A stretch of DNA of 64,000 bases from Candidatus Collinsella stercoripullorum (lineage in GTDB: Bacteria; Actinomycetota; Coriobacteriia; Coriobacteriales; Coriobacteriaceae): contig DXAO01000013.1 of assembly GCA_019117005.1 (NCBI GenBank), positions 1 to 64,000 of the forward strand, in the 5' to 3' direction. The notes under the pieces were generated by a model. The model was not told the DNA's origin. It did no database searches and worked only from the letters and a program-made list of their open reading frames with translations. Made by a program: the position numbers and the translations under genes. Positions within the stretch are counted from its first letter, which is position 1. Every line of letters begins with the position of its first letter. Of the stretch, positions 96-62,338 are shown one piece after another.

Positions 96-2018
96 CTAGC
101 CCCTTGTCACACAAACTACCGAAGCCTCATATTTTGTCGCATAGCACTCCCAGTTGGGGTGGGACTCATCTATGCGTTCTTCAAGACTTGAGAACAAGTC
201 GAAGCACTTTCCTCCTTCCAAGAGGCTGGGGTGGTCTTCCATCGTCCAGATTCCCTTGCCGCGGCTTGCCTTTTTTGGTTTATATGTCTCGACGATTTGT
301 GGGTCGATATGTGGATACGGCCAGACCTTCAGAGCCTCATCAGCGAGAATCGACGCTCTTTCCTCTATCTGCGCTTCAGTCCAGACGTTCTGGTCTCGCA
401 CATAGTCATTTAGGGCATATGGGCTTTTTCTGAACCCATATTGGGCATCGTCGAGTTTCTGTTCGAAGGGTTTGTTGGACAACTCCGAGTTCGCCCCTGT
501 CAGCGTAAGATTGCCGAGGTTGTTGCAGTACTCGTCATGGATCATCTCCCAGGAGTCTCCGAGCATTGCCTGCCATTCGGGTGAGTCGTCGATGCTCTGC
601 GGCATGATGTGCTCGATTTGATATTCCTTTCCTAAGCTAATGGGTTGCTTGGGGTGACGGGCGTTTTCGAGCCTCTCGAGCAGGTATTTCCGCTTGGTGA
701 AGCGGTTGTAGCAATCGCGCGTTACCAGTTGTTCATGGAAATGATCATCGGTGGGGAAGTATGCCGTCATGTTTCTGTCATGGGTAAGCAGCATCGCCGT
801 CACGTAGGTCTCGATATCCGCCTGGCGAGAAATGTCCCTGTAAACGGTTGCAAAGAAGCCGTTGAGGCCGGTGGAGAGGCGTCCGATGACTGCTCGCCTG
901 AAGAGGAAGGATTCAAGCACGTTGCACAGCCTCAGAAGGGCATCTGCGGTCAGCCTGCCCATATCGACCTGATCGTAGAGGACCATCATGAGCGGCCGAA
1001 TGGGTTTCACCCCAAGTTCCACTATGCGCTCAAATACGTCCTTCAGATTTTTGTCAGACTCGGTGCCGAGGAACATATCGGAGTAGCGCCGGGCAAAGCG
1101 AAGGAGCTCCTGGAGCAGCTCCTCTACCGATCCCCCGAAATAGTCCTGCTTGAAGCACTTGAACTCGTTATAGACCTCGTTTTCCGCGGGCTTTCGCTCC
1201 GGAACCTTTATCCAGAGCCAGTACCGCATGAATGCGTTGAACTCATGATCGCTGTTCTCTGCTGCGTTGAACGTGTCCTCCATCGGTTTCCAATAGGTCT
1301 CAAACAGGTGGGACTGCTCCTTCTCTGGGAGCGACATCAGGATGTAGTTTCTGATCAGGTCTGTCGGGCTGAGCGGCTTTCCCTTTGAGTTCATGGACTC
1401 GAAGATGAGCTGGGCATCATCGATTCCTGCCGTCAGCTCGGTATCGATGACTTGAAGGTTTAGGAGCCCCGTCCAAAGCACCTTCGGATCAAAGGACTTT
1501 CCCATCATCCACTGTCTGAAGCTGTTGAGGTTGTCTATGAGCCGCGGAGAAGATTCTTTAGGAAGCGCGTTTCTCGCGACGATCGAGTACAGCGTTTCTC
1601 GGTCCTCTTGAGATAGGGAGAGCTTATAGCGCGCATCTCCGTTGTAGTCATCGTCATTGAAGAGATAGTTCTTTCTGAGTCCGGACACCTTGATGTCGGT
1701 GAGGAACTCCGCTCGTTTGGGATCTTCTTCAAGATACTCGACGAACGCCTCGAGAAGTAAAGTCATTGTTGTCATGCGCTGCTGACCATCTATGAGCAGA
1801 TGCCTCTTCATGCCGGTAATCGTCGAGGCTCCCTCGGGTATATGGAGCACCGAGCCAATGAAGTGGGTCCTGTTTTGCTTGCCGGCTCGGATGATGTCGT
1901 TCCACAACGTTCGGCAGTCCGCTTCTTCCCATGCGTATTTTCGCTGGTAAACGGGGATTACATACTGAACAGTTGAGGCTCCCAGCAGCTGGAGAAAGGA
2001 TGCCATATTTGCCTGCAT
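96..2018 (-). CDS. DUF262/DUF1524 GmrSD-like nuclease
   Basis: A 640-residue protein with the DUF262 (GmrS-type) N-terminal domain and a DUF1524 HNH-type C-terminal domain. DUF262 marks are PVYQRKYAWEE near residue 22, LIDGQQR near 75 and FESMNSKGKPLSPTDLIRNY near 205. The HNH signature is EHIMPQS near residue 468, followed by NLGNLTL near 500. In characterised members such as GmrSD, the first domain is an NTPase and the second cuts DNA, often modified phage DNA. A phage-defence role is therefore the likely one, by family only. The ATG at 2018 is preceded by AAGGGG at good spacing. Codon use is clearly more AT-rich than most of the window, consistent with horizontal gain. No methylase partner is visible to the right. 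Confidence 0.85.
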   Translation of the reverse strand: MQANMASFLQLLGASTVQYVIPVYQRKYAWEEADCRTLWNDIIRAGKQNRTHFIGSVLHIPEGASTITGMKRHLLIDGQQRMTTMTLLLEAFVEYLEEDPKRAEFLTDIKVSGLRKNYLFNDDDYNGDARYKLSLSQEDRETLYSIVARNALPKESSPRLIDNLNSFRQWMMGKSFDPKVLWTGLLNLQVIDTELTAGIDDAQLIFESMNSKGKPLSPTDLIRNYILMSLPEKEQSHLFETYWKPMEDTFNAAENSDHEFNAFMRYWLWIKVPERKPAENEVYNEFKCFKQDYFGGSVEELLQELLRFARRYSDMFLGTESDKNLKDVFERIVELGVKPIRPLMMVLYDQVDMGRLTADALLRLCNVLESFLFRRAVIGRLSTGLNGFFATVYRDISRQADIETYVTAMLLTHDRNMTAYFPTDDHFHEQLVTRDCYNRFTKRKYLLERLENARHPKQPISLGKEYQIEHIMPQSIDDSPEWQAMLGDSWEMIHDEYCNNLGNLTLTGANSELSNKPFEQKLDDAQYGFRKSPYALNDYVRDQNVWTEAQIEERASILADEALKVWPYPHIDPQIVETYKPKKASRGKGIWTMEDHPSLLEGGKCFDLFSSLEERIDESHPNWECYATKYEASVVCVTRG

Positions 2019-3475: not shown

Positions 3476-4600
3476 CTACGCGGTGCGGTGCGCCTTGGGC
3501 TGCTGCTGCGTGATGCAGTGGATGTTGCCGCCGCCGTAGATGATCTCGCGCGTCATGATGCCGATCACCTCGCGGTCCGGGTAGGCCGCCTGGATGTCCT
3601 TGAGCGCCTGCTCGTCGTTGGGGTCGCCAAACTGGGGGACCAGAACGGCGCCGTTGATGGGCAGGAAGTTGAGGTAGCTCGGCTCGAAGGCGTCCTCGGG
3701 CGTGCGGGGCAGGCTGCCCTCCACGAGGTCGATGGTCGAGGCCTCCTCCTCGGTCATGTAGACCGACGTGCTCGGCATGATCACCTTGTGCACCTTGAGC
3801 TTGCGGCCGCGGGCGTCCGTCGCTTCGCAGAGCACGCGGTATGCCTCCTGACACTCGCGGTAGAACTTGTGGTCGGGGTCGTCCGTCCACATGCAGCACA
3901 CCTCGCCCGGGGCGTTGAAGCGCGCCACGTCGTCCACGTGGCCGTTCGTCTCATAGGGGTCGATGCCGTCCTTGATCCAGATGACCTTCTCGATGCCCAG
4001 GTACTCGCCCAGCAGCTCCTCGATCTGCTCCTTGGTGTACTGGGGATTGCGGTCCTCGTTGAGCAGGCACATCTCGGTGGTCACGACCGTGCCCTGGCCG
4101 TCGCAGTTGAACGAGCCGCCCTCTAGGATGAAGTCGTCGGGGCGGTAGCGCGTCACCTGCTCGATCTGGCTGATCTGCAGGCCGAGCGAGGCGTCCTTGT
4201 CCCAGGGGAAATACAGGCCGTCGATCATGCCGCCGTAGCCGTTGAAGTGCCAGTGGCAGGCGCGCTTGTCGCCCTTGCCGTCGATCACGTAGGTGCAGGC
4301 GGTGTCGCGGAACCAGGCGTCGTCGGTGGTCATCTCGATGACGGTGACGTTCTCGTCTTCCTCGAAGACGGCCTTGCAGTTGGCGTAGTCGGCCTGGTTG
4401 GCGCACATGGTGACCGGCGTGAACCGAGAGATGGCGCGGGCGATTTCGGCGTACTGGGCCTGGGCGGGCTTGGCGCCGTGGGCCCAGGTGTCGGTGCGGT
4501 GGGGCCAGCCCATCCACACGCGGTCCTGCGGGGCGAACTCGGCGGGCATGTAGAAGCCGTCGGCCTTGGGGGTGGATTCGGACTCGGTGATCGTACGCAT
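3476..4600 (-). CDS. aguA: Agmatine deiminase
   Basis: A 374-residue enzyme of the agmatine deiminase/PPAD guanidino-group family, about the usual length. It converts agmatine to N-carbamoylputrescine and ammonia in the cytoplasm (EC 3.5.3.12). Family marks are FAPQDRVWMGWPHR near residue 22, the DAWFRDT segment near 93, EGGSFNCDGQGT near 160, NGHVDD near 218 and GGGNIHC at the end. The nucleophile is Cys362. An AGGAGGTAAT-type ribosome site precedes the ATG at 4600. It sits downstream of an amino-acid permease gene on the same strand, the usual place for an agmatine/putrescine exchanger. A terminator separates the two, so aguA probably also has its own promoter. Confidence 0.95.
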   Translation of the reverse strand: MRTITESESTPKADGFYMPAEFAPQDRVWMGWPHRTDTWAHGAKPAQAQYAEIARAISRFTPVTMCANQADYANCKAVFEEDENVTVIEMTTDDAWFRDTACTYVIDGKGDKRACHWHFNGYGGMIDGLYFPWDKDASLGLQISQIEQVTRYRPDDFILEGGSFNCDGQGTVVTTEMCLLNEDRNPQYTKEQIEELLGEYLGIEKVIWIKDGIDPYETNGHVDDVARFNAPGEVCCMWTDDPDHKFYRECQEAYRVLCEATDARGRKLKVHKVIMPSTSVYMTEEEASTIDLVEGSLPRTPEDAFEPSYLNFLPINGAVLVPQFGDPNDEQALKDIQAAYPDREVIGIMTREIIYGGGNIHCITQQQPKAHRTA

Positions 4601-4783: not shown

Positions 4784-5635
4784 TTACTCGCCATCAGCCT
4801 CCTTGGCCTCGGCTGCCAGGCGCGCGGCGGCGAGCTTTGGCGTGAGGCCGCGGTACTCCTCCTTGCGGTCGCGGGCGGAGACGACGCGGACCACCTCGCC
4901 CACGAGCAGCAGCACGATGAAGCCGATGAGCATGGGAACCTTGTCTGCGACCTCGGCCCCGGAGAGCGGCACGACGGTCGCGACGATCGTCAGCACGAGC
5001 TCGATGCAGGGCACCGCGAGGGCGACCTTCATCAGCGCGCCCTCGAACGGGAAGCGGAACACGCGCTCACGGTCGGGATCGTTCTTGCGCAGGTTGAGGA
5101 AGGCAGGGAACATTGGAATGTAGGTGAGCAGCAGGAACACGACGGAGGTGCCGAACAGCATCCAGAAGATGCCGTTGGAGATGGCGTCGCCGTTCAGGAC
5201 CCACTCGGAGTCGGCGACCTTGCTGCGGCCGATGAGGTAGACGATCCAGACGAAGGCGAGCTCGATGGCGATCGCTGCGGGAAGGTCGAAGGTGATGCCG
5301 AAAACCATGCCCAGGATGTCGGGGAACATGGTGGCGAGGGATGCGATCCACAGCGGGTAGTTCACCCTGTAGTAGAAGGAGATGCGGGCGCCCCACCTGT
5401 CGCCCAGGCCCTCGCGGACCCAGTCGTAGATGCCGCCCTCCCCGTCATAGGTCGTTCCCAGCTCGGCGACGACCATGCCGTAGGGGAGCAGGAACGTGAT
5501 GATGAGGAAGATCCACCAGAAGAACTGCTGGTTTCCGATGGCGGCCGCCGGGGCGGCGGCCTCGCAGACGAAGGCCACGCAGATGACCGTGGAGATGACG
5601 GTCAGGAAAGAGAGCTTCTTTGCTTTTTCTGCCAT
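4784..5635 (-). pseudogene. APC-family amino-acid permease with internal in-frame deletion
   Basis: The protein is 283 residues from the ATG at 5635, which has AAAGGA upstream. It resembles amino-acid/polyamine antiporters of the APC superfamily, which usually have about 450-500 residues and 12 membrane segments. The N-terminal part is typical (TVISTVICVAFVCEAAAP, then WWIFLIITFLLPYGMVVAEL and TYDGEGGIYDWV). The C-terminal part is also typical (LNLRKNDPDRERVFRFPF and the last helices). The middle is missing. The likely join is around EWVLNG/DAISNGIFWM, near residue 152. Only about 7-8 helices remain, so transport is doubtful. Next to aguA, the intact version was probably an agmatine-putrescine exchanger. 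A short functional variant cannot be excluded. Confidence 0.7.
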
Positions 5636-5688
5636 GGTAGTAATCCTTTGCTCAGTCGTTGGGGCCGGCACCCCGGGACGCACCCTGA

Positions 5689-5955
5689 GCTCAGCGAATT
5701 GGGAGCGACCCGGGGTACCGGCCAGGTCGACGGGAGGCAGGAGACGAGCATCTCCAGGAGTTCTGCGACCGCAACGGGATCTCTAAGCGCGAGTCCGAGG
5801 TGCTCCGATTGGTGCTGCAGGGCAAGAGCAACCAGGAGATCGCCGACGAGCTGTTCCTTGCGCTGGGGACGGTGAAGACCCATGTCCACAACCTGCTGGT
5901 GAAGTGCGACAAGAAGAAGCGCGACGACCTGATCCTTTATTTCTGGCAGTCGTGA
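5689..5955 (+). pseudogene. C-terminal HTH fossil of a LuxR-family regulator
   Basis: A frame open from 5689 to the TGA at 5953-5955 encodes a LuxR-type DNA-binding domain: ISKRESEVLRLVLQGKSNQE, then IADELFLALGTVKTHVHNLL and a basic tail. This is a full four-helix GerE/LuxR HTH with the usual TVKTHV recognition helix. No start codon, ribosome site or sensor domain precedes it, and the frame is closed at 5686. Coriobacteria carry many regulators in which this HTH follows a multi-helix membrane sensor. This looks like the tail of one, its front lost to a deletion reaching the permease 5' region. It is probably not expressed as a regulator. Confidence 0.65.
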
Positions 5956-6033
5956 TCGCGCCGTGTGGCCGGCGTCCATATGTGGCGCCCTCGTGCAGTA
6001 ATGGTAGGGAATCGCGGGAGAGCTTGCGCGAGC

Positions 6034-6088
6034 TCCTCTTCTCGGAATAATTGATACTCGAATCATATCAATTATTCCGAGAAGAGGA
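6034..6088 (+). promoter_or_regulatory. 23-bp perfect hairpin masking the ribosome site of the surface gene
   Basis: Arms 6034-6056 and 6066-6088 are perfect inverted copies of 23 bases with a 9-base loop. The right arm contains the Shine-Dalgarno (AGAGGAAG, 6083-6090) of the gene starting at 6094. The left arm therefore contains an exact anti-Shine-Dalgarno. There is no U tract, so it is not a standard terminator. The arms are much more AT-rich than their surroundings. Confidence 0.75.
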
Positions 6089-6093
6089 AGACC

Positions 6094-9000
6094 ATGAAGC
6101 GAACCATGACCAAGCTGCGTCCCGCCGTCACCGCGGCGCTCGCGTTCTCGATGGCGGTGCCCGCGCCCATCGCGCGCGCCGCCGAGCTCGAGGCGCTGGA
6201 GGAGCCCGAGTCCCCGTCCGAGGAGGGGGCATCCCCCGAAGGCGAAACCGTCCAGACCCCGCCCGCCGACGCGCCCCCTGCGGACGCGGGCGCGATCGCC
6301 CCGGGTGAGCCTGACTCGGAGCTCGACACTTCCGCTGCGGCCGACGATGCGCTCGACGGGGGCGACGCGGCTCCGTCTTCCCCGGTCGACGAGGCCCCCG
6401 TCCCGACGGATTCCGCTGCGGGCGACGCCGAGGACGCTGCGGCCTCCGCCTCCCTCGCCGAGGGCGACGTCGCCGTCGACGCGTCCTCGTTTCCCGACGC
6501 CGCCTTCCGCGCCTGGGTGCTCGACCCCGCCAGCCTTCGCGGGGCGGGTGCCGACGGGGTGCTCACGCGCGAGGAGCGCGAGGCGGTGACCGGGATCCTC
6601 GCCAAGAGGCTCGGCATCCGCGACATCACGGGCATCGAGCTTTTCCCCAACCTCACGTTCATCGACTTCGAGGGCAACTACATCGAGCAGGCGGACCTGT
6701 CGGGAAATCCCGAGCTGCTCACGGTGTACCTGCGCAACAACTGCCTTACGAGCATCGATTTTTCGCACAACACCAAGCTCGAGTTCATCGAGATCTTCGA
6801 CAACCGCCTCGCGGAGGTCGATGTGTCGATGCTCCCCAACCTCAAGTTTGTCCACCTGGACTACAACGATCTCAAGGTCATCGATCTGAGCCACAACACC
6901 AAGCTCGAGTCGGATGGCTTCGTGGGCAACAACAACCCGCTCGAGAAGGTGGTCCTTCCCAAGATCGAGGGGCGCTCCTTCGACTCGTTCGTGATCTCGG
7001 AGCTCGACGAGTACAAGGGGTACACCTCCACGCTGCCGGAATGGTACACCACCGCCGACTTCCAACCGGGCACGGGCATCACGCCCTCCACGGTGGCCGA
7101 TCGCGTATACATTCCCTTCGACGGGCAGACGCTCTACGTCAAGCGGACGCCCAACGCCTATACCGTGCGCTTTGACGCCAACGGCGGCGACGGGACGATG
7201 GAGCCGGTTGCGCGCACCTGGGACGACGGCGCCCAGGCGCTGCCCGCATCCTCTTTTGGCCGCCTTGGGTACCGCTTCGCCGGCTGGGCGAAGGATCCTG
7301 ACGGAAAAGCGGTGTACGGCGACGGCCAGGAGGTCGCAAACATCGCCGGCGCCAAGGATACGGGCGAGACGGTGACGCTCTACGCCGTATGGGAGCCCGT
7401 CGCCGAATCGAGCGGATACTTCCGCTCCCAGCTCTCCGGGGATGAGCGCGCGCTCTACGACGAGATCGTCTCGCAGCTCGGCGGTCTTACCGACCCCGGC
7501 GATCCCGGCGCGCTCGAGGTATATGCGCCCGATGGGCTCGACCGCTCGCTCGACCGGGCGCTGTTCGCCGCCCTGCGCGACCATCCCGAGTACTTCTGGA
7601 TCGACTACTCGCGCCTCTCATGGGAGGAGACGGGCGAGTCCCGGTTCGCCCTAGCGCCGCGCGTCTCCGGCGAGTCGTACTTCGTGGACGGCTTCACCGC
7701 CGAGAACCTTGCCGGCTACCGCGAGCGCTTCGAGGCCCGGGTTGACGAGGTCGTGGCGGGGGCGCCGGCAGATCCGCTGCTCGCGGTGAGGTACCTCAAC
7801 TCGTGGCTTTGCGCCAACAACGTGTACAACCCCAGCGGGCTGGGCGCCTCCAACTTCTCGCGCACGGCGGCGAGCGGGATCCTGAGCGCAAACGACGCGG
7901 CGAGCGGGCCGGTGTGCTACGGCTACGCGACCGCCATGAAGGTGCTCCTCGATCGCGCGGGCATAGAGAACGCCTACGTGGAGGGATGGGCGTATAACGG
8001 CAAAAACGGTTCGGGCGAGCAGCACGCCTGGAACTACGTGAACGTCGACGGCTCATGGTACGCCGTCGACCCCACCTGGAACGACCCGTCCTCCGCCTCG
8101 GCCCCCGCGCTCGAGACCTATCTGCTGGTGGGTTCGGATACCGTCACCGCGCCGTCCCTTGCGGGCAAGGAGGCCTTTGGCGCCAACCATGATGCATCGA
8201 AAAGCCCCGCTTTGCGCTACGGTTTGGGCTACCCGACGCTTTCCGTCGACGCATGCCCGGGCGTTTCCGCCGGGCTCGTCGAGGTGGTGGACGGGGACGC
8301 CTCCCGGCGCTTCGACTCGCTCGATGAGGCCCTTGCCGCCGCCGAAGAGGGACAGACGATCCGCCTTTGGGGCGATATCGAGCTCGCGGGAACGGCCACG
8401 GTCGCCCGCGATGCCGTCATAGACCTCAACGGCTACGGGCTGGCCTGCCCGTCGGCGCCTGCGCTGCGGGTGGATGGCGGCGCCTCGCTGAGGATCGCCA
8501 ATTCCGCGGGCGCCCAGTCGACCGTCTCCTCTCGCACGGGCGCCGCCGTGATGAACGGCGGGAAGCTCACGGTCGACCCATGGGTGCGCCTGAAGGGTGC
8601 GGGCATGAGCGCCGTTTCGGGGACGGAACCCGCGGCGGGCGCGCACGCCTACCTCGTGCGCACGACGGGGGCGTATACGGCATACGAGGTCGTGTCCCCC
8701 GTATCGCCCGAGGCGGGAGCCGTGGACGTATCCGATGCCGGCAATACCCTCGAGGGCCTTATCGCCTATGTGAACGGGGAGGGCAGGCCCCGGGTGGACT
8801 TTTCCTACCTCACGGCGACCGGCTCGTCCATGCCGATTCCCGGCACCGCGGTCCCTGCATATTCCTGGGAGCTTGCTTCCGGGGCCGCAGACGGGGATGG
8901 CCTTGTGCGCGGCGCCTATACGTTCAAGGCGACGGCGTTCGGCTATGAGCTGTCCTACTCCGTCACCGTGGGGGATCGAGCTCTCGAGCAGTCGCTCGAG

Positions 9001-10269
9001 GCGGCTGCAAATAAGGCGGACTCCGCCCTCGCCGAGCTCGCGTCCCGGGCGGAGGCCGGTCTTGTGACCGCTTACGATCTGGAGCGCGCCCGCACCGAGG
9101 CGGACGCCGCCCTCGCCGCGATGGGGGAGGCGTCGACGGCCGACGAGGTGGATCGGATGGCCTCGGCGCTCCTCGCGCGCCTGGACGCGACGCCCACGAC
9201 CGCGCAGCGGGCTTCCGACCTGGAGGCGGCCTGGCGCGCCGAGCACGCCCGCGCCCTCGCATGCGTCTTCGAGGGGTCGGTTTCGTTCGCCAATGCCGTC
9301 GAGCGTCTTGCGGCGGCGCGCGAGGCCATCGATGCGGCGAGCCTGCAGAGTCTGGCGGACATGCTTCCCGAGGGCATGGGGGCGGCCGACCGCGCGCTCG
9401 TGGCCTCGATTGCACGGTCGCAGATCGAGGCTGCCGCCGATGGGCTCTCCGGTCTGGAGGCCCTCGCGGCGGCAGCCGCCTGGTCCCAGGGCGCCGCGGC
9501 GGTGGTCGACGGGTTGCCCGACCCGGTGACCGGGGACGAGGTCGAGCCGCTCCAGGATCTTGCCGACAGCCTCAGTGCCCTCGAAGGAGAGGTGCGCCGC
9601 CTTATCTCGTCCGTCGATGCGTCGCGGATCTCCGATCTTCTCGACGAGGCCCTTGCCGCTGCAGATGGCGAGGGCGAGCAGCAGCCTGGTGATGTGGGCC
9701 AGCCCGGCGAGGGCGAGCAACCCGGCGATGATGGCGAACAGCCCGGCGACGGGGAGCAGCAGCCCGGCGATGATGGCGAGGGCCAGCCCGGCGACGAAGA
9801 GAAGCCGGGAGACGAGGAGAAGCCCGGCGAGGGCGAGGAGCAGCCCGGGGATGAGGACCAGCCCGGCGACGATTCGACGGGGCTGGAGGACGGCTCCACG
9901 GAGACTGACGATGGGACGTCCGAGTCCGACGATGCCGGTTCGGTAACCGAGGACCACAAAGATCGGGTTCCGTCATCAGCCGGCACGCTGCAGCGGGAAA
10001 TGACTGCCGACAACGGCCGAAACGAGGGGGCGTCCCGATCCCTGACGTCAAGCGCTGCCGCGGAGTCCACCTCATCGACCTCGACGGGCACCGACGCTCA
10101 ACGCGACGAGGCGGTGCAGGATGAGGATGCGGCTACGGCGAGCGCGTCGACCAAGGCGAGCACGTCGGCTGAGGCAGATTCCGACGTACCGGTCGCAGGT
10201 GTTGCCGCTATCGCCGCGGCGCTCGTTGCGGCAGCGGGCGCTGTGATAAGGTTCCGACGCCGTTCGTAG
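6094..10269 (+). CDS. Secreted LRR / InlB-repeat / transglutaminase-like surface protein
   Basis: A 1391-residue wall or surface protein. It starts with a signal peptide (about 1-30, ending in Ala-Arg-Ala) and an acidic Ala/Pro/Glu linker to about residue 125. Leucine-rich repeats follow at about 170-290 (LTSIDFSHNTKLEFIEIFDN and similar). A Listeria-Bacteroides InlB-type repeat lies at about 355-435. A transglutaminase-like domain follows, with triad Cys608 (GPVCYGYATAMK), His644 (EQHAWNYV) and Asp659 (YAVDPTW). Helical regions and a Glu/Gln/Pro/Gly/Asp repeat at about 1190-1270 precede a C-terminal hydrophobic helix with an FRRRS tail. A clear LPxTG is absent, so anchoring may be by the membrane helix. 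ATG 6094 is chosen for its Shine-Dalgarno, which sits in a strong hairpin. Likely role: peptide or glycoprotein remodelling, or adhesion. Confidence 0.85.
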   Translation: MKRTMTKLRPAVTAALAFSMAVPAPIARAAELEALEEPESPSEEGASPEGETVQTPPADAPPADAGAIAPGEPDSELDTSAAADDALDGGDAAPSSPVDEAPVPTDSAAGDAEDAAASASLAEGDVAVDASSFPDAAFRAWVLDPASLRGAGADGVLTREEREAVTGILAKRLGIRDITGIELFPNLTFIDFEGNYIEQADLSGNPELLTVYLRNNCLTSIDFSHNTKLEFIEIFDNRLAEVDVSMLPNLKFVHLDYNDLKVIDLSHNTKLESDGFVGNNNPLEKVVLPKIEGRSFDSFVISELDEYKGYTSTLPEWYTTADFQPGTGITPSTVADRVYIPFDGQTLYVKRTPNAYTVRFDANGGDGTMEPVARTWDDGAQALPASSFGRLGYRFAGWAKDPDGKAVYGDGQEVANIAGAKDTGETVTLYAVWEPVAESSGYFRSQLSGDERALYDEIVSQLGGLTDPGDPGALEVYAPDGLDRSLDRALFAALRDHPEYFWIDYSRLSWEETGESRFALAPRVSGESYFVDGFTAENLAGYRERFEARVDEVVAGAPADPLLAVRYLNSWLCANNVYNPSGLGASNFSRTAASGILSANDAASGPVCYGYATAMKVLLDRAGIENAYVEGWAYNGKNGSGEQHAWNYVNVDGSWYAVDPTWNDPSSASAPALETYLLVGSDTVTAPSLAGKEAFGANHDASKSPALRYGLGYPTLSVDACPGVSAGLVEVVDGDASRRFDSLDEALAAAEEGQTIRLWGDIELAGTATVARDAVIDLNGYGLACPSAPALRVDGGASLRIANSAGAQSTVSSRTGAAVMNGGKLTVDPWVRLKGAGMSAVSGTEPAAGAHAYLVRTTGAYTAYEVVSPVSPEAGAVDVSDAGNTLEGLIAYVNGEGRPRVDFSYLTATGSSMPIPGTAVPAYSWELASGAADGDGLVRGAYTFKATAFGYELSYSVTVGDRALEQSLEAAANKADSALAELASRAEAGLVTAYDLERARTEADAALAAMGEASTADEVDRMASALLARLDATPTTAQRASDLEAAWRAEHARALACVFEGSVSFANAVERLAAAREAIDAASLQSLADMLPEGMGAADRALVASIARSQIEAAADGLSGLEALAAAAAWSQGAAAVVDGLPDPVTGDEVEPLQDLADSLSALEGEVRRLISSVDASRISDLLDEALAAADGEGEQQPGDVGQPGEGEQPGDDGEQPGDGEQQPGDDGEGQPGDEEKPGDEEKPGEGEEQPGDEDQPGDDSTGLEDGSTETDDGTSESDDAGSVTEDHKDRVPSSAGTLQREMTADNGRNEGASRSLTSSAAAESTSSTSTGTDAQRDEAVQDEDAATASASTKASTSAEADSDVPVAGVAAIAAALVAAAGAVIRFRRRS
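9670..9890 (+). repeat. Low-complexity Glu/Gln/Pro/Gly/Asp repeat coding region
   Basis: Degenerate repeats of a GEQPGD / EKPGD type unit in the stalk of the surface protein. Repeat length varies and copies are degenerate, as in wall-spanning stalks. Confidence 0.8.
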
Positions 10270-10350: not shown

Positions 10351-10551
10351 GTGGTCCCGTTTGCCCGGAGGTTCGCCCCGCCTGCCGAAGGGGGGCACGG
10401 ACCGCGCGGGCAGCCTTTGGACCCGGGTTTGATACCTTAAGGATTGTCTAAGGAATCCTCGAGATATCCCGTGGGTGCAACGGGTAACAGAAGCGGACCT
10501 AGTAAGTGCGCCCGGTCCCGGTATGAGGCCGGACGGGAAAGGAGATGCACG

Positions 10552-11517
10552 ATGTGCACGGGTATTCGCTTTAACGACGCGGACGGGAAGATGTTCTTCG
10601 GCCGCAATCTCGATTGGACCCAGGGCTACGGCGAGCGCGTGGTGGCGACGCCTCCCGCCGCTCGGGTTCCCGCGGCGTTCGATCGCCCCAGCGACCCGAA
10701 GGTGGGACATGCCGTCATCGGCATGGGGATCGTCGTCGACGGCATTCCGCTCTATTTCGATTGCGGCAACGATGCCGGGCTCGCCGTCGCGGGTCTCAAC
10801 TTTCCCCAAAGCGCGCGCTATGCTCAGCGGGCGCACGAGGGGTCGGTGAACGTCGCCGCCTATGAGTTCCCCTATTGGATCGCTCGCACGTTCTCGACGG
10901 TGGAGGAGGTTCGGTCCGCCCTTGCGGGGGTGAACGTCGTGGCGAAGCCGGTCAACGACCGGCTCCCCGTTGCGAACCTCCACTGGATCATCGGCGACGC
11001 GACGGGCAGCATCGTGGTCGAGTGCATGGAAGACGGGCTCCACATCTGGGAGAACGACGTCGACGTGCTCACCAACGAGCCCGATTTCGGGTGGCAGCGC
11101 ACCAACCTCAGGAACTACCTCATGCTCGACGACGAGGAGCCCGCCCATGTCGAATGGCGCGGCGCCGCGCTGGCGCCCTTCGGTTCGGGCATGGGCATGC
11201 AGGGAATGCCCGGGGATTACAGCGGTCCTGCCCGCTTCGTGAAGGTCGCGTTCGTGAACAGCCATTATCCAATGCAGACGGAGGAGCGCGCCAACGTCGT
11301 GCGCCTGTTCCGCACCCTCGGATCGGTCGCCGTGCCGGACGGGTGCGCCAAGATGGCTGACGGATCCTGCGAGAAAACCCTGTACACCAGCTGCTTCTCC
11401 GCGGCGAGCCTCACCTATTACCATGCGGTCTACGACGACCCCACCATCCGTGCATACCCGCTGTCCTCCGTGGACCTGGCGGGCGCCGAGCCCGTGGTCG
11501 TGCCGCCGGCGGCCTAG
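10552..11517 (+). CDS. bsh: Bile salt hydrolase / choloylglycine hydrolase, copy 1
   Basis: A 321-residue Ntn-hydrolase. I place the start at ATG 10552, giving Met-Cys2, because Cys2 is the catalytic nucleophile exposed after Met removal and GGAAAGGAGA lies just upstream. The residues known from clostridial bile salt hydrolases are present: Cys2, Arg18, Asp21, Asn83 (family Asn82), Asn175 (TNEPDF) and Arg228 (GDYSGPAR). It should cleave glycine- or taurine-conjugated bile acids in the cytoplasm, although penicillin V acylase and lactonase relatives share the fold. An MFS permease follows 35 bases later, probably in the same operon. A second copy of this two-gene unit lies at 41-44 kb, about 80% identical at the protein level by eye. 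Confidence 0.93.
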   Translation: MCTGIRFNDADGKMFFGRNLDWTQGYGERVVATPPAARVPAAFDRPSDPKVGHAVIGMGIVVDGIPLYFDCGNDAGLAVAGLNFPQSARYAQRAHEGSVNVAAYEFPYWIARTFSTVEEVRSALAGVNVVAKPVNDRLPVANLHWIIGDATGSIVVECMEDGLHIWENDVDVLTNEPDFGWQRTNLRNYLMLDDEEPAHVEWRGAALAPFGSGMGMQGMPGDYSGPARFVKVAFVNSHYPMQTEERANVVRLFRTLGSVAVPDGCAKMADGSCEKTLYTSCFSAASLTYYHAVYDDPTIRAYPLSSVDLAGAEPVVVPPAA

Positions 11518-61538: not shown

Positions 61539-61577
61539 TTCCGGCCCCCTTGCCGGGGCCGTCGACCGGCCCCACGG

Positions 61578-61633
61578 CCAAAGGATTCCAGAACCCAGCG
61601 CAACGCGTTGCGCTGGGTTCTGGAATCCTTTGG
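61578..61633. repeat. 56-bp perfect palindrome (abutted IS ends)
   Basis: 28 bases (61578-61605) are followed with no spacer by their exact reverse complement (61606-61633), centre AACGCGTT. Each half is an IS30-type terminal repeat. IS30 elements transpose through a dimer with abutted inverted repeats, which this resembles. A further partial copy, GCGTTGCGCTGAGGTTG, follows at about 61637. Confidence 0.85.
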
Positions 61634-61727
61634 CACGCGTTGCGCTGAGGTTGAAACTTTAGGTGCAAATCAAACCGTTGCCTATCGGAGGCAAACGGAT
61701 AGTCCTGAAAGTCTCGCGCCGTTCGTG

Positions 61728-61749: not shown

Positions 61750-61773
61750 ACGTCTCGGGGAAAGGTGCCCATC

Positions 61774-62043
61774 ATGACGCTTTGCGTTCCGGTTAGGGAT
61801 ATGAAGGACACGGCGGCGTTCGCCAGGCTCGTTAGGGAGTCTTCTGAGCCCGTCACGGTCACCAAGAACGGATACAGTGAATTCGTAGTTATGCGCAGCG
61901 AGGATTACGACCTTATGTGCGAGGAGGTTGCAAAGGCTCGTCTCGTCCGCGTGCTCGCTGATGCGGACAAAGCATATGAGGCGGGTGAATATGTCGACGG
62001 CGATTCCTTCATTGCGAGCCTGAAGGGGCGTTATGACCTGTAA
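61774..62043 (+). CDS. Phd/YefM-family antitoxin
   Basis: An 89-residue antitoxin. The N-terminal DNA-binding part has the family pattern VPVRDMKDTAAFARLVRES, then EPVTVTKNGYSEFVVMRSED; the C-terminal acidic tail (DADKAYEAGEYVDGDSFIAS) would wrap the toxin. ATG 61774 has AAAGG 8 bases upstream; GTG 61765 is less well placed. It overlaps the toxin gene by 11 bases. Composition is low in GC, a mark of mobility. Confidence 0.92.
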   Translation: MTLCVPVRDMKDTAAFARLVRESSEPVTVTKNGYSEFVVMRSEDYDLMCEEVAKARLVRVLADADKAYEAGEYVDGDSFIASLKGRYDL

Positions 62044-62338
62044 CTACGTACTCCTTCCCCGCGCCCAACAAGATTTCGATGGAATAGTCCGTTATCTTTC
62101 CATTGATCTTGCAAGCCCTGCGACTGCGCGGCGATTCATCAGCGAGTTTGAAAAAAGCATGATGCTCGTCTGCGAGCACCCGGAGATGTATCCCTTGAGT
62201 CAGATGGATGAGGTGGCGGCTCGCGGCTATCGCGCCATGCGCGTAATGAGATACATCGTTTTGTATGCAAATAGAGATGACAAAATCGTGGTTGCGCACA
62301 TCTTCCATTCGCTGCAGGATTACGCGCGCTACGTCTAG
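62033..62338 (+). CDS. RelE/ParE-family toxin
   Basis: A 101-residue toxin of the RelE/ParE superfamily: YVLLPRAQQDFDGIVRYLSI, then helix ASPATARRFISEFEKSM, MYPLSQMDEVAARGYRAMRV, YIVLYANRDDKIVVAHIFHS. The spacing and the C-terminal strand with HIFHS fit a RelE-type fold; mRNA cleavage or gyrase poisoning cannot be told apart here. Coupled to the antitoxin by an 11-base overlap. Confidence 0.9.
   Translation: MTCNYVLLPRAQQDFDGIVRYLSIDLASPATARRFISEFEKSMMLVCEHPEMYPLSQMDEVAARGYRAMRVMRYIVLYANRDDKIVVAHIFHSLQDYARYV

What the first reader, a model, noticed from the sequence alone, without database searches (positions are those of the whole stretch)
6034..6096. Ribosome site of a surface protein locked in a 23-bp perfect hairpin
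The right arm of a perfect 23-bp inverted repeat contains the Shine-Dalgarno, 6 bases before the ATG; the left arm is an exact anti-Shine-Dalgarno. Such a stem should block translation unless opened by a factor, by temperature, by an antisense RNA or by transcript start within it. Its AT-rich arms stand out, so it could also be a protein-binding operator.
Basis: partly seen in the sequence, partly recalled or inferred. Interest (0 to 1): 0.62.

Follow-up and report, generated by a model that had tools for sequence, protein, structure and literature searches.

The report
Inverted copy of a borrowed leader
In front of a gut bacterium's surface-protein gene lies a perfect 23-letter DNA hairpin that looks like a recent back-to-front copy of another gene's promoter and ribosome site, which could silence the gene by hiding its ribosome site or by turning its promoter round, but no switch has been shown.

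Summary
The hairpin is real: arms 6034-6056 and 6066-6088, 23/23 paired, 9-nt spacer, Shine-Dalgarno (SD) in the right arm, ATG at 6094. It is far beyond chance and the only one of its kind in 475 kb of this genome.

Comparison changes its meaning. The right arm plus spacer match the promoter-leader of an unrelated gene, a small DUF1450-like CxxC protein on contig C14 of the same genome (23 of 28 bases). Several congeners conserve that leader as TATGnRACAAT-N7-RCAATTW. CAATTA-N1-5-CCGAGAAGRGG occurs, in 197 genomes of the order, only in the two arms here and in two congeners' leaders of that gene. The match to C14 is on the minus strand: the spacer lies reversed relative to its SD. Simplest history: a captured leader, an inverted copy made by replication template switching, a reversed spacer.

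The stem would hide the SD only in transcripts that begin at or before about 6034. By homology, transcription belongs inside the hairpin, leaving the SD free. As assembled, that promoter faces away from the gene. A locked ribosome site is possible, not shown; assembly k-mers of 24 or less cannot tell the spacer's orientation.

The parts
6034..6056 (.). left arm of the perfect inverted repeat; read here as the newer, inverted copy of the right arm
   Evidence: the native downstream flank (AGACCATG, cf. GACCATG or GAAGACATG in congeners) is on the right-arm side only
6057..6065 (.). 9-nt spacer; its reverse complement TGATTCGAG matches the C14 leader CAATTCGAG at 7 of 9, in the present orientation 1 of 9
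   Evidence: the six congener leaders alone give 2-4 of 9 inverted against 1-3 of 9 as it stands, not informative
6066..6088 (+). right arm: leader-like CAATTATTCCGAGAAGAGGA, carries the SD
6084..6088 (+). Shine-Dalgarno GAGGA
   Evidence: sequence
6062..6070 (-). extended -10-like TG-A-TATGAT on the minus strand (pointing away from the surface gene), in register with TGnRACAAT of the conserved leaders
   Evidence: inference
6024..6051 (+). alternative weak promoter-like pair TTGCGC-16-AATAAT, partly in the left arm; would start RNA inside the spacer
   Evidence: score 9.4; background 90% 8.6, 95% 10.35; not found by the stricter scan
6094..10269 (+). surface protein ORF, 1391 aa: signal-like N terminus, LRR, Listeria-Bacteroides repeat, transglutaminase core, C-terminal hydrophobic anchor
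5787..5955 (+). remnant of a LuxR-type regulator (GerE domain only), 79% identical over 118 bases to a full-length gene on contig C36

Best explanation
The hairpin is a young palindrome. The surface-protein gene's start region carries a promoter-leader of the type that serves a small DUF1450-like CxxC protein elsewhere in this genome. A replication template switch (or like event) copied 23 bp of that leader, SD included, in inverted orientation just upstream, and the 9-bp spacer between the copies is reversed relative to the source. Consequences, inferred: (1) a transcript arriving from upstream folds a 23-bp stem that hides the SD; (2) a transcript that starts inside the hairpin, where the source promoter starts, lacks the left arm and has a free SD; (3) with the spacer as assembled, the source's extended -10 element points away from the gene, so the gene is probably weakly expressed unless another promoter serves it. 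Shown: the repeat, its leader homology, and the computed occlusion as a function of the 5' end. Inferred: the history, the promoter, the expression state.
For: Perfect 23/23 repeat. TCGGAATAATTGNNACTCGAAT occurs exactly twice in the genome, here and at C14:91273. GGAATAATTG occurs exactly only in the two arms and there. Minus-strand 28-mer: 23 of 28 to the C14 leader; the next best place outside the hairpin has 18 of 28 among 949,198 positions of sampled DNA; 0 of 1000 shuffles do as well against C14. C14's match is the leader of a gene found in 12 of 43 genus genomes, with ATATGnRACAATn7RCAATTW in 7 of those 12. CAATTAN{1,5}CCGAGAAGRGG: 3 of 197 genomes, in this palindrome and in two congener leaders of that gene; control 0. 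SD occlusion depends on the 5' end. Template switching makes perfect hairpins and inverts spacers, reversibly (PMC8794818, PMC8604942: passages read).
Against: No strain or sister species with the pre-duplication form was found, so the event is not polarised by an outgroup at this locus. Against the flipped 28-mer the six congener leaders alone are not significant (12-15 of 28; 69-709 of 1000 shuffles as good, and one of them fits the present orientation better); the link rests on the own C14 leader and on the CCGAGAAGRGG stretch. ACAATN7RCAATTW is not specific: 33 matches in 27 of 43 genomes against 16 for the reversed-pattern control. The -10 call uses a recalled E. coli matrix. The spacer orientation may be an assembly choice.
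Confidence: 0.5

Rival explanations
1. A functional RNA lock or insulator: transcripts from upstream form the stem and are not translated unless opened by a factor, temperature or antisense RNA; or, as in fold-back control of transposase genes (recalled for IS10/IS50), only transcripts that start inside the hairpin are translated.
For: Stem of -34.5 kcal/mol; SD unpaired 0.02-0.10 with a 5' end at or before 6034 and 0.5-0.7 from 6040 on. The left arm complements the SD exactly.
Against: No conservation or covariation: no relative with the hairpin. No Rfam match at gathering scores, only chance miRNA-like hits. The perfect pairing is explained by recency. A 23-bp stem is far too stable to melt as an ordinary thermometer (established knowledge).
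Confidence: 0.22
2. A DNA operator: a dimeric repressor binds GGAATAATTGATA-N9-TATCAATTATTCC over the promoter.
For: AT-rich dyad in a 68% G+C window. AATTGATA-N4-14-TATCAATT occurs in 5 of 395 order genomes, reversed-pattern control 0. By my reading of the flanks the four others lie near a Fur/PerR-type regulator, an XRE-type regulator, an XRE-type antitoxin-like gene and an ATPase gene. A 12-bp AT-rich dyad sits before the SD of a toxin-like gene in this genome.
Against: Spacers differ (4-7 nt there, 9 here), so not one regulator's site. Symmetry of 55 bp that runs through the SD is longer than an operator needs. No second copy of the dyad in the genome. No regulator gene beside it except a LuxR remnant.
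Confidence: 0.2
3. Assembly or amplification artefact: a foldback chimera in the source data, or a real hairpin with the spacer assembled in the wrong orientation.
For: The genome is in 59 contigs. k-mers up to 24 are identical for both spacer orientations.
Against: The palindrome is 55 bp with unique flanks, so one ordinary short read spans it; the copied block is short.
Confidence: 0.08

Closest known systems
Template-switch-made hairpins and spacer inversions (PMC8794818, PMC8604942; plastid 'small inversions', PMC6824564; passages read)
   Same: Perfect arms made as a reverse-complement copy; spacer in inverted orientation; short spacer between long arms
   Different: Here the copied block is a promoter-leader with its SD, and the ancestral and inverted forms were not seen at the same locus in relatives
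Fold-back control of transposase translation (IS10/IS50 type; recalled, primary papers not read)
   Same: Transcripts from outside include an arm that hides the SD; transcripts from an inside promoter do not
   Different: No transposase gene; the promoter inside appears to face away; neither transcript demonstrated
CIRCE/HrcA-type operator (consensus and N9 spacing recalled)
   Same: Inverted repeat with a 9-nt spacer near the SD
   Different: Different sequence, 23-bp instead of 9-bp arms, not at a heat-shock gene
Invertible promoters (invertons) of gut bacteria (search listing only)
   Same: Inverted repeats around a promoter element upstream of a surface-protein gene
   Different: A 9-bp spacer is far too short for a site-specific recombinase; a flip would need template switching or cruciform resolution; no alternative state observed

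Membership tests
Template-switch palindrome | arms perfectly reverse-complementary | tested here: met
   23/23
Template-switch palindrome | one arm has an identifiable source, the other is new | tested here: inconclusive
   right arm and its flank resemble leaders of the DUF1450-like gene; no sister locus without the left arm was found
Template-switch palindrome | spacer may be inverted relative to the ancestor | tested here: inconclusive
   7 of 9 inverted against 1 of 9 direct versus the C14 leader; congener leaders uninformative; assembly orientation unverified
SD-sequestering riboregulator (thermometer, riboswitch, fold-back) | stem hides the SD in the full transcript | tested here: met
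   (prediction only)
SD-sequestering riboregulator (thermometer, riboswitch, fold-back) | left arm is part of the mRNA | not testable with these tools
   no 5'-end data; homology suggests a start inside the hairpin
SD-sequestering riboregulator (thermometer, riboswitch, fold-back) | structure conserved with compensatory changes | tested here: not met
   no relative with the hairpin in 42 other genus genomes or 64 other family genomes; none like it in the surface-protein relatives scanned
CIRCE/HrcA operator | CIRCE consensus (recalled) | tested here: not met
   sequence differs
Dimeric-repressor operator | a cognate regulator binds the dyad | not testable with these tools
   no regulator gene beside it but a GerE-only remnant
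Intrinsic terminator | stem followed by a T run | tested here: not met
   right arm followed by AGACCATG; the scan found only a weak unrelated site on the minus strand
Invertible promoter | both orientations seen in one population | not testable with these tools
   one assembly, no reads

The most novel reading that the evidence does not exclude
A recombinase-free phase switch: the 9-bp spacer flips by template switching between its perfect arms. In the flipped state it makes an extended -10 (TGATATGAT, spanning the arm/spacer junction) that faces the surface gene, and the mRNA starts past the left arm with a free SD. In the present state the promoter faces away and read-through mRNA is locked by the stem, so the OFF state has two layers.
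Probability: 0.06. Interest if true: 0.75.

Novelty: new variant of a known kind. Interest (0 to 1): 0.38.

Why it matters
It offers a concrete case of how one replication error could create, in a single step, a ribosome-site-hiding stem and a reversed promoter in front of a surface-protein gene. If spacer flips occur at a useful rate, it would be phase variation without a recombinase. If not, it is a caution that perfect hairpins over ribosome sites can be young mutations and not riboregulators.

Tried and rejected
Terminator: no T run. Rfam: only sub-threshold miRNA-like hits, which any long perfect hairpin attracts. Mobile-element ends: no further full copies of the arm in the genome, none in plasmid or phage records. 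One viral contig has the 18 specified bases, about what chance gives in a collection of that size (my estimate); its context is 37% G+C and unrelated. Shared coding sequence: the arm can be read as FEYQLFREEE on the minus strand; no relative beyond itself at a meaningful E-value in 43 genomes. Surface-protein orthologs: relatives are distant (24 loci, 24-60% best-segment identity, one of them labelled Collinsella and one Bacteroidales, the rest by their titles Firmicutes); the scan of these and of the genus loci found no comparable hairpin. Paper searches on the readthrough/SD theme gave little: 0 papers, listing only, with passages of one paper read. CIRCE search: listing only. Invertible-promoter search: listing only.

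Rows dropped before counts: of the 12 leaders, L125-L127 lack the full motif, L121 has it altered, and for L128 my script picked a wrong start, so it was not judged. The alignment used 7 of the 12 leaders (L117-L123); L124, nearly identical to L123, and L125-L128 were left out. In one search the spacer-register table had wrong rows for C14 and G040 (first CAATT taken); one search replaces it.

Full report
OBSERVATION. The inverted repeat is exactly as described: 6034-6056 and 6066-6088, 23 of 23 paired, spacer CTCGAATCA, with GAGGA at 6084-6088 and ATG at 6094. The RNA of 6020-6120 folds at -44.5 kcal/mol, z -7.6. The window is 68% G+C and the hairpin is a local AT-rich island. Perfect long inverted repeats are not unique here: 10 with arms of 19 or more in 474,599 bases sampled (window plus 22 stretches). 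Most of these carry a REP-like GGGACAGGCAC sequence or lie between genes. Only this one has 23-bp arms ending in an SD and start codon; the other two of 3 among 66 have 12-bp arms.

SURROUNDINGS. The downstream ORF (1391 aa) has LRR, Listeria-Bacteroides repeat and transglutaminase-core domains and a C-terminal hydrophobic anchor (sequence). Upstream lies a scar: a GerE-domain-only remnant of a LuxR-type regulator ending at 5955 and a permease ORF with an internal gap, both related to an intact LuxR / carbamoyltransferase / permease cluster on contig C36 (the carbamoyltransferase is named by eye). I saw no regulator gene beside the hairpin other than this remnant.

THE MATCH ELSEWHERE. A 15-base piece of the arm, searched in the whole genome with up to 3 mismatches, gave a second place on contig C14 in which the match continued into the spacer. 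TCGGAATAATTGNNACTCGAAT has exactly two places in the own genome, none in the other 42 genus genomes at up to 3 mismatches and none in the other 64 family genomes at up to 2. The exact 10-mer GGAATAATTG occurs only in the two arms and on C14. On C14 it lies just upstream of a small CxxC protein gene. The congener protein resembles DUF1450 (Pfam PF07293, 24.2 bits, below the 30.1 cut-off); the gene is present in 12 of 43 genus genomes. Seven of those 12, the own genome included, share ATATGnRACAATnnnnnnnRCAATTW before the SD. This looks like an extended -10 promoter with its start region, an inference from the motif and its spacing to the SD. The loose pattern ACAATN7RCAATTW alone is not specific: 33 matches in 27 of 43 genomes against 16 for the control.

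HOW THE WINDOW FITS. Read on the minus strand, the hairpin's GATATGATTCGAGTATCAATTATTCCGA matches the C14 leader GAAACAATTCGAGTGGCAATTATTCCGA at 23 of 28. The best other place outside the hairpin among 949,198 positions scanned has 18, and 0 of 1000 shuffles do as well against C14. Against the six congener leaders the same 28-mer is not significant on its own (12-15 of 28). The distal part has an independent link: CAATTAN{1,5}CCGAGAAGRGG was found in 3 of 197 order genomes, namely in both arms here and in the leaders of the CxxC gene in G040 and G041, with 0 control matches; G036 has it too. In the sampled own DNA CCGAGAAGRGG occurs 3 times, once before a start codon, which is this site. The ATG-side flank (AGACCATG) resembles those leaders only on the right-arm side. 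So the right arm is most simply the original and the left arm its inverted copy. The spacer fits the C14 leader at 7 of 9 when inverted and 1 of 9 as it stands.

MECHANISM. Replication template switching makes perfect reverse-complement arms in one step and inverts spacers, reversibly (PMC8794818 and PMC8604942, passages read; plastid small inversions, PMC6824564, passages). I infer: leader capture by the surface gene, then inverted copying, then (or with it) spacer inversion. Effect on RNA: with 5' ends at 5990-6034 the SD is 2-10% unpaired; from 6040 on it is 50-71% unpaired; a transcript from 6057 has no notable fold (z 0.47). So the stem matters only if RNA enters from upstream. My rough promoter scan, with a recalled E. 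coli matrix, puts all sites of 5930-6094 scoring above 7 within or overlapping the hairpin. The stricter scan finds none, so promoter placement rests on homology more than on scores. In the assembled orientation the homologous -10 faces away from the gene; reversed, it would face the gene.

CAVEATS. The orientation of the spacer is undetermined for k-mers of 24 or less and determined at 25 or more; raw reads are needed. One genome per species was available, so no within-species comparison was possible. The operator reading keeps some support: AATTGATA-N4-14-TATCAATT occurs in 5 of 395 order genomes, control 0, and by my reading the four others lie near regulator-type or antitoxin-like genes or an ATPase gene. 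But the spacers differ, and the leader homology explains the sequence without a repressor.

VERDICT. 'Ribosome site locked' is one conditional consequence, not shown. The best-supported account is a recent inverted copy of a borrowed promoter-leader. A 9-bp flip switch is the boldest reading not excluded.

Noticed in passing
window 61577-61634: 58-bp perfect palindrome with no spacer, between a transposase-like ORF on the minus strand (IS30-type by eye) and a Phd-like / RelE-like gene pair at 61765-62338 (by eye); IS-end-like sequence follows it.
   Followed up: partly
window 4784-5955: Degraded duplicate of a cluster on contig C36: permease ORF kept in frame across an internal deletion of about 0.58 kb with a 10-base overlap of the two aligned pieces, next to a GerE-only LuxR remnant. 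An agmatine-deiminase-type gene (PAD_porph) lies at 3476-4600.
   Followed up: partly
L092:6379-6452 (contig C14): 74-bp perfect palindrome without spacer between two genes, 41% G+C arms.
   Followed up: no
L087, L090, L091 (contig C52): REP-like family TGGGAAAATAGGGACAGGCACTTTTTTCCCA in perfect inverted pairs with 30-50-bp arms.
   Followed up: no
L097:10240-10276 (contig C36): 12-bp AT-rich dyad directly before the SD of a 126-aa ORF that looks like a HigB/RelE-type toxin followed by an HTH antitoxin (by eye); probably an autoregulation operator.
   Followed up: no
window 99-2018 and 10444-11517: A GmrSD-type restriction protein and a choloylglycine hydrolase family gene.
   Followed up: no
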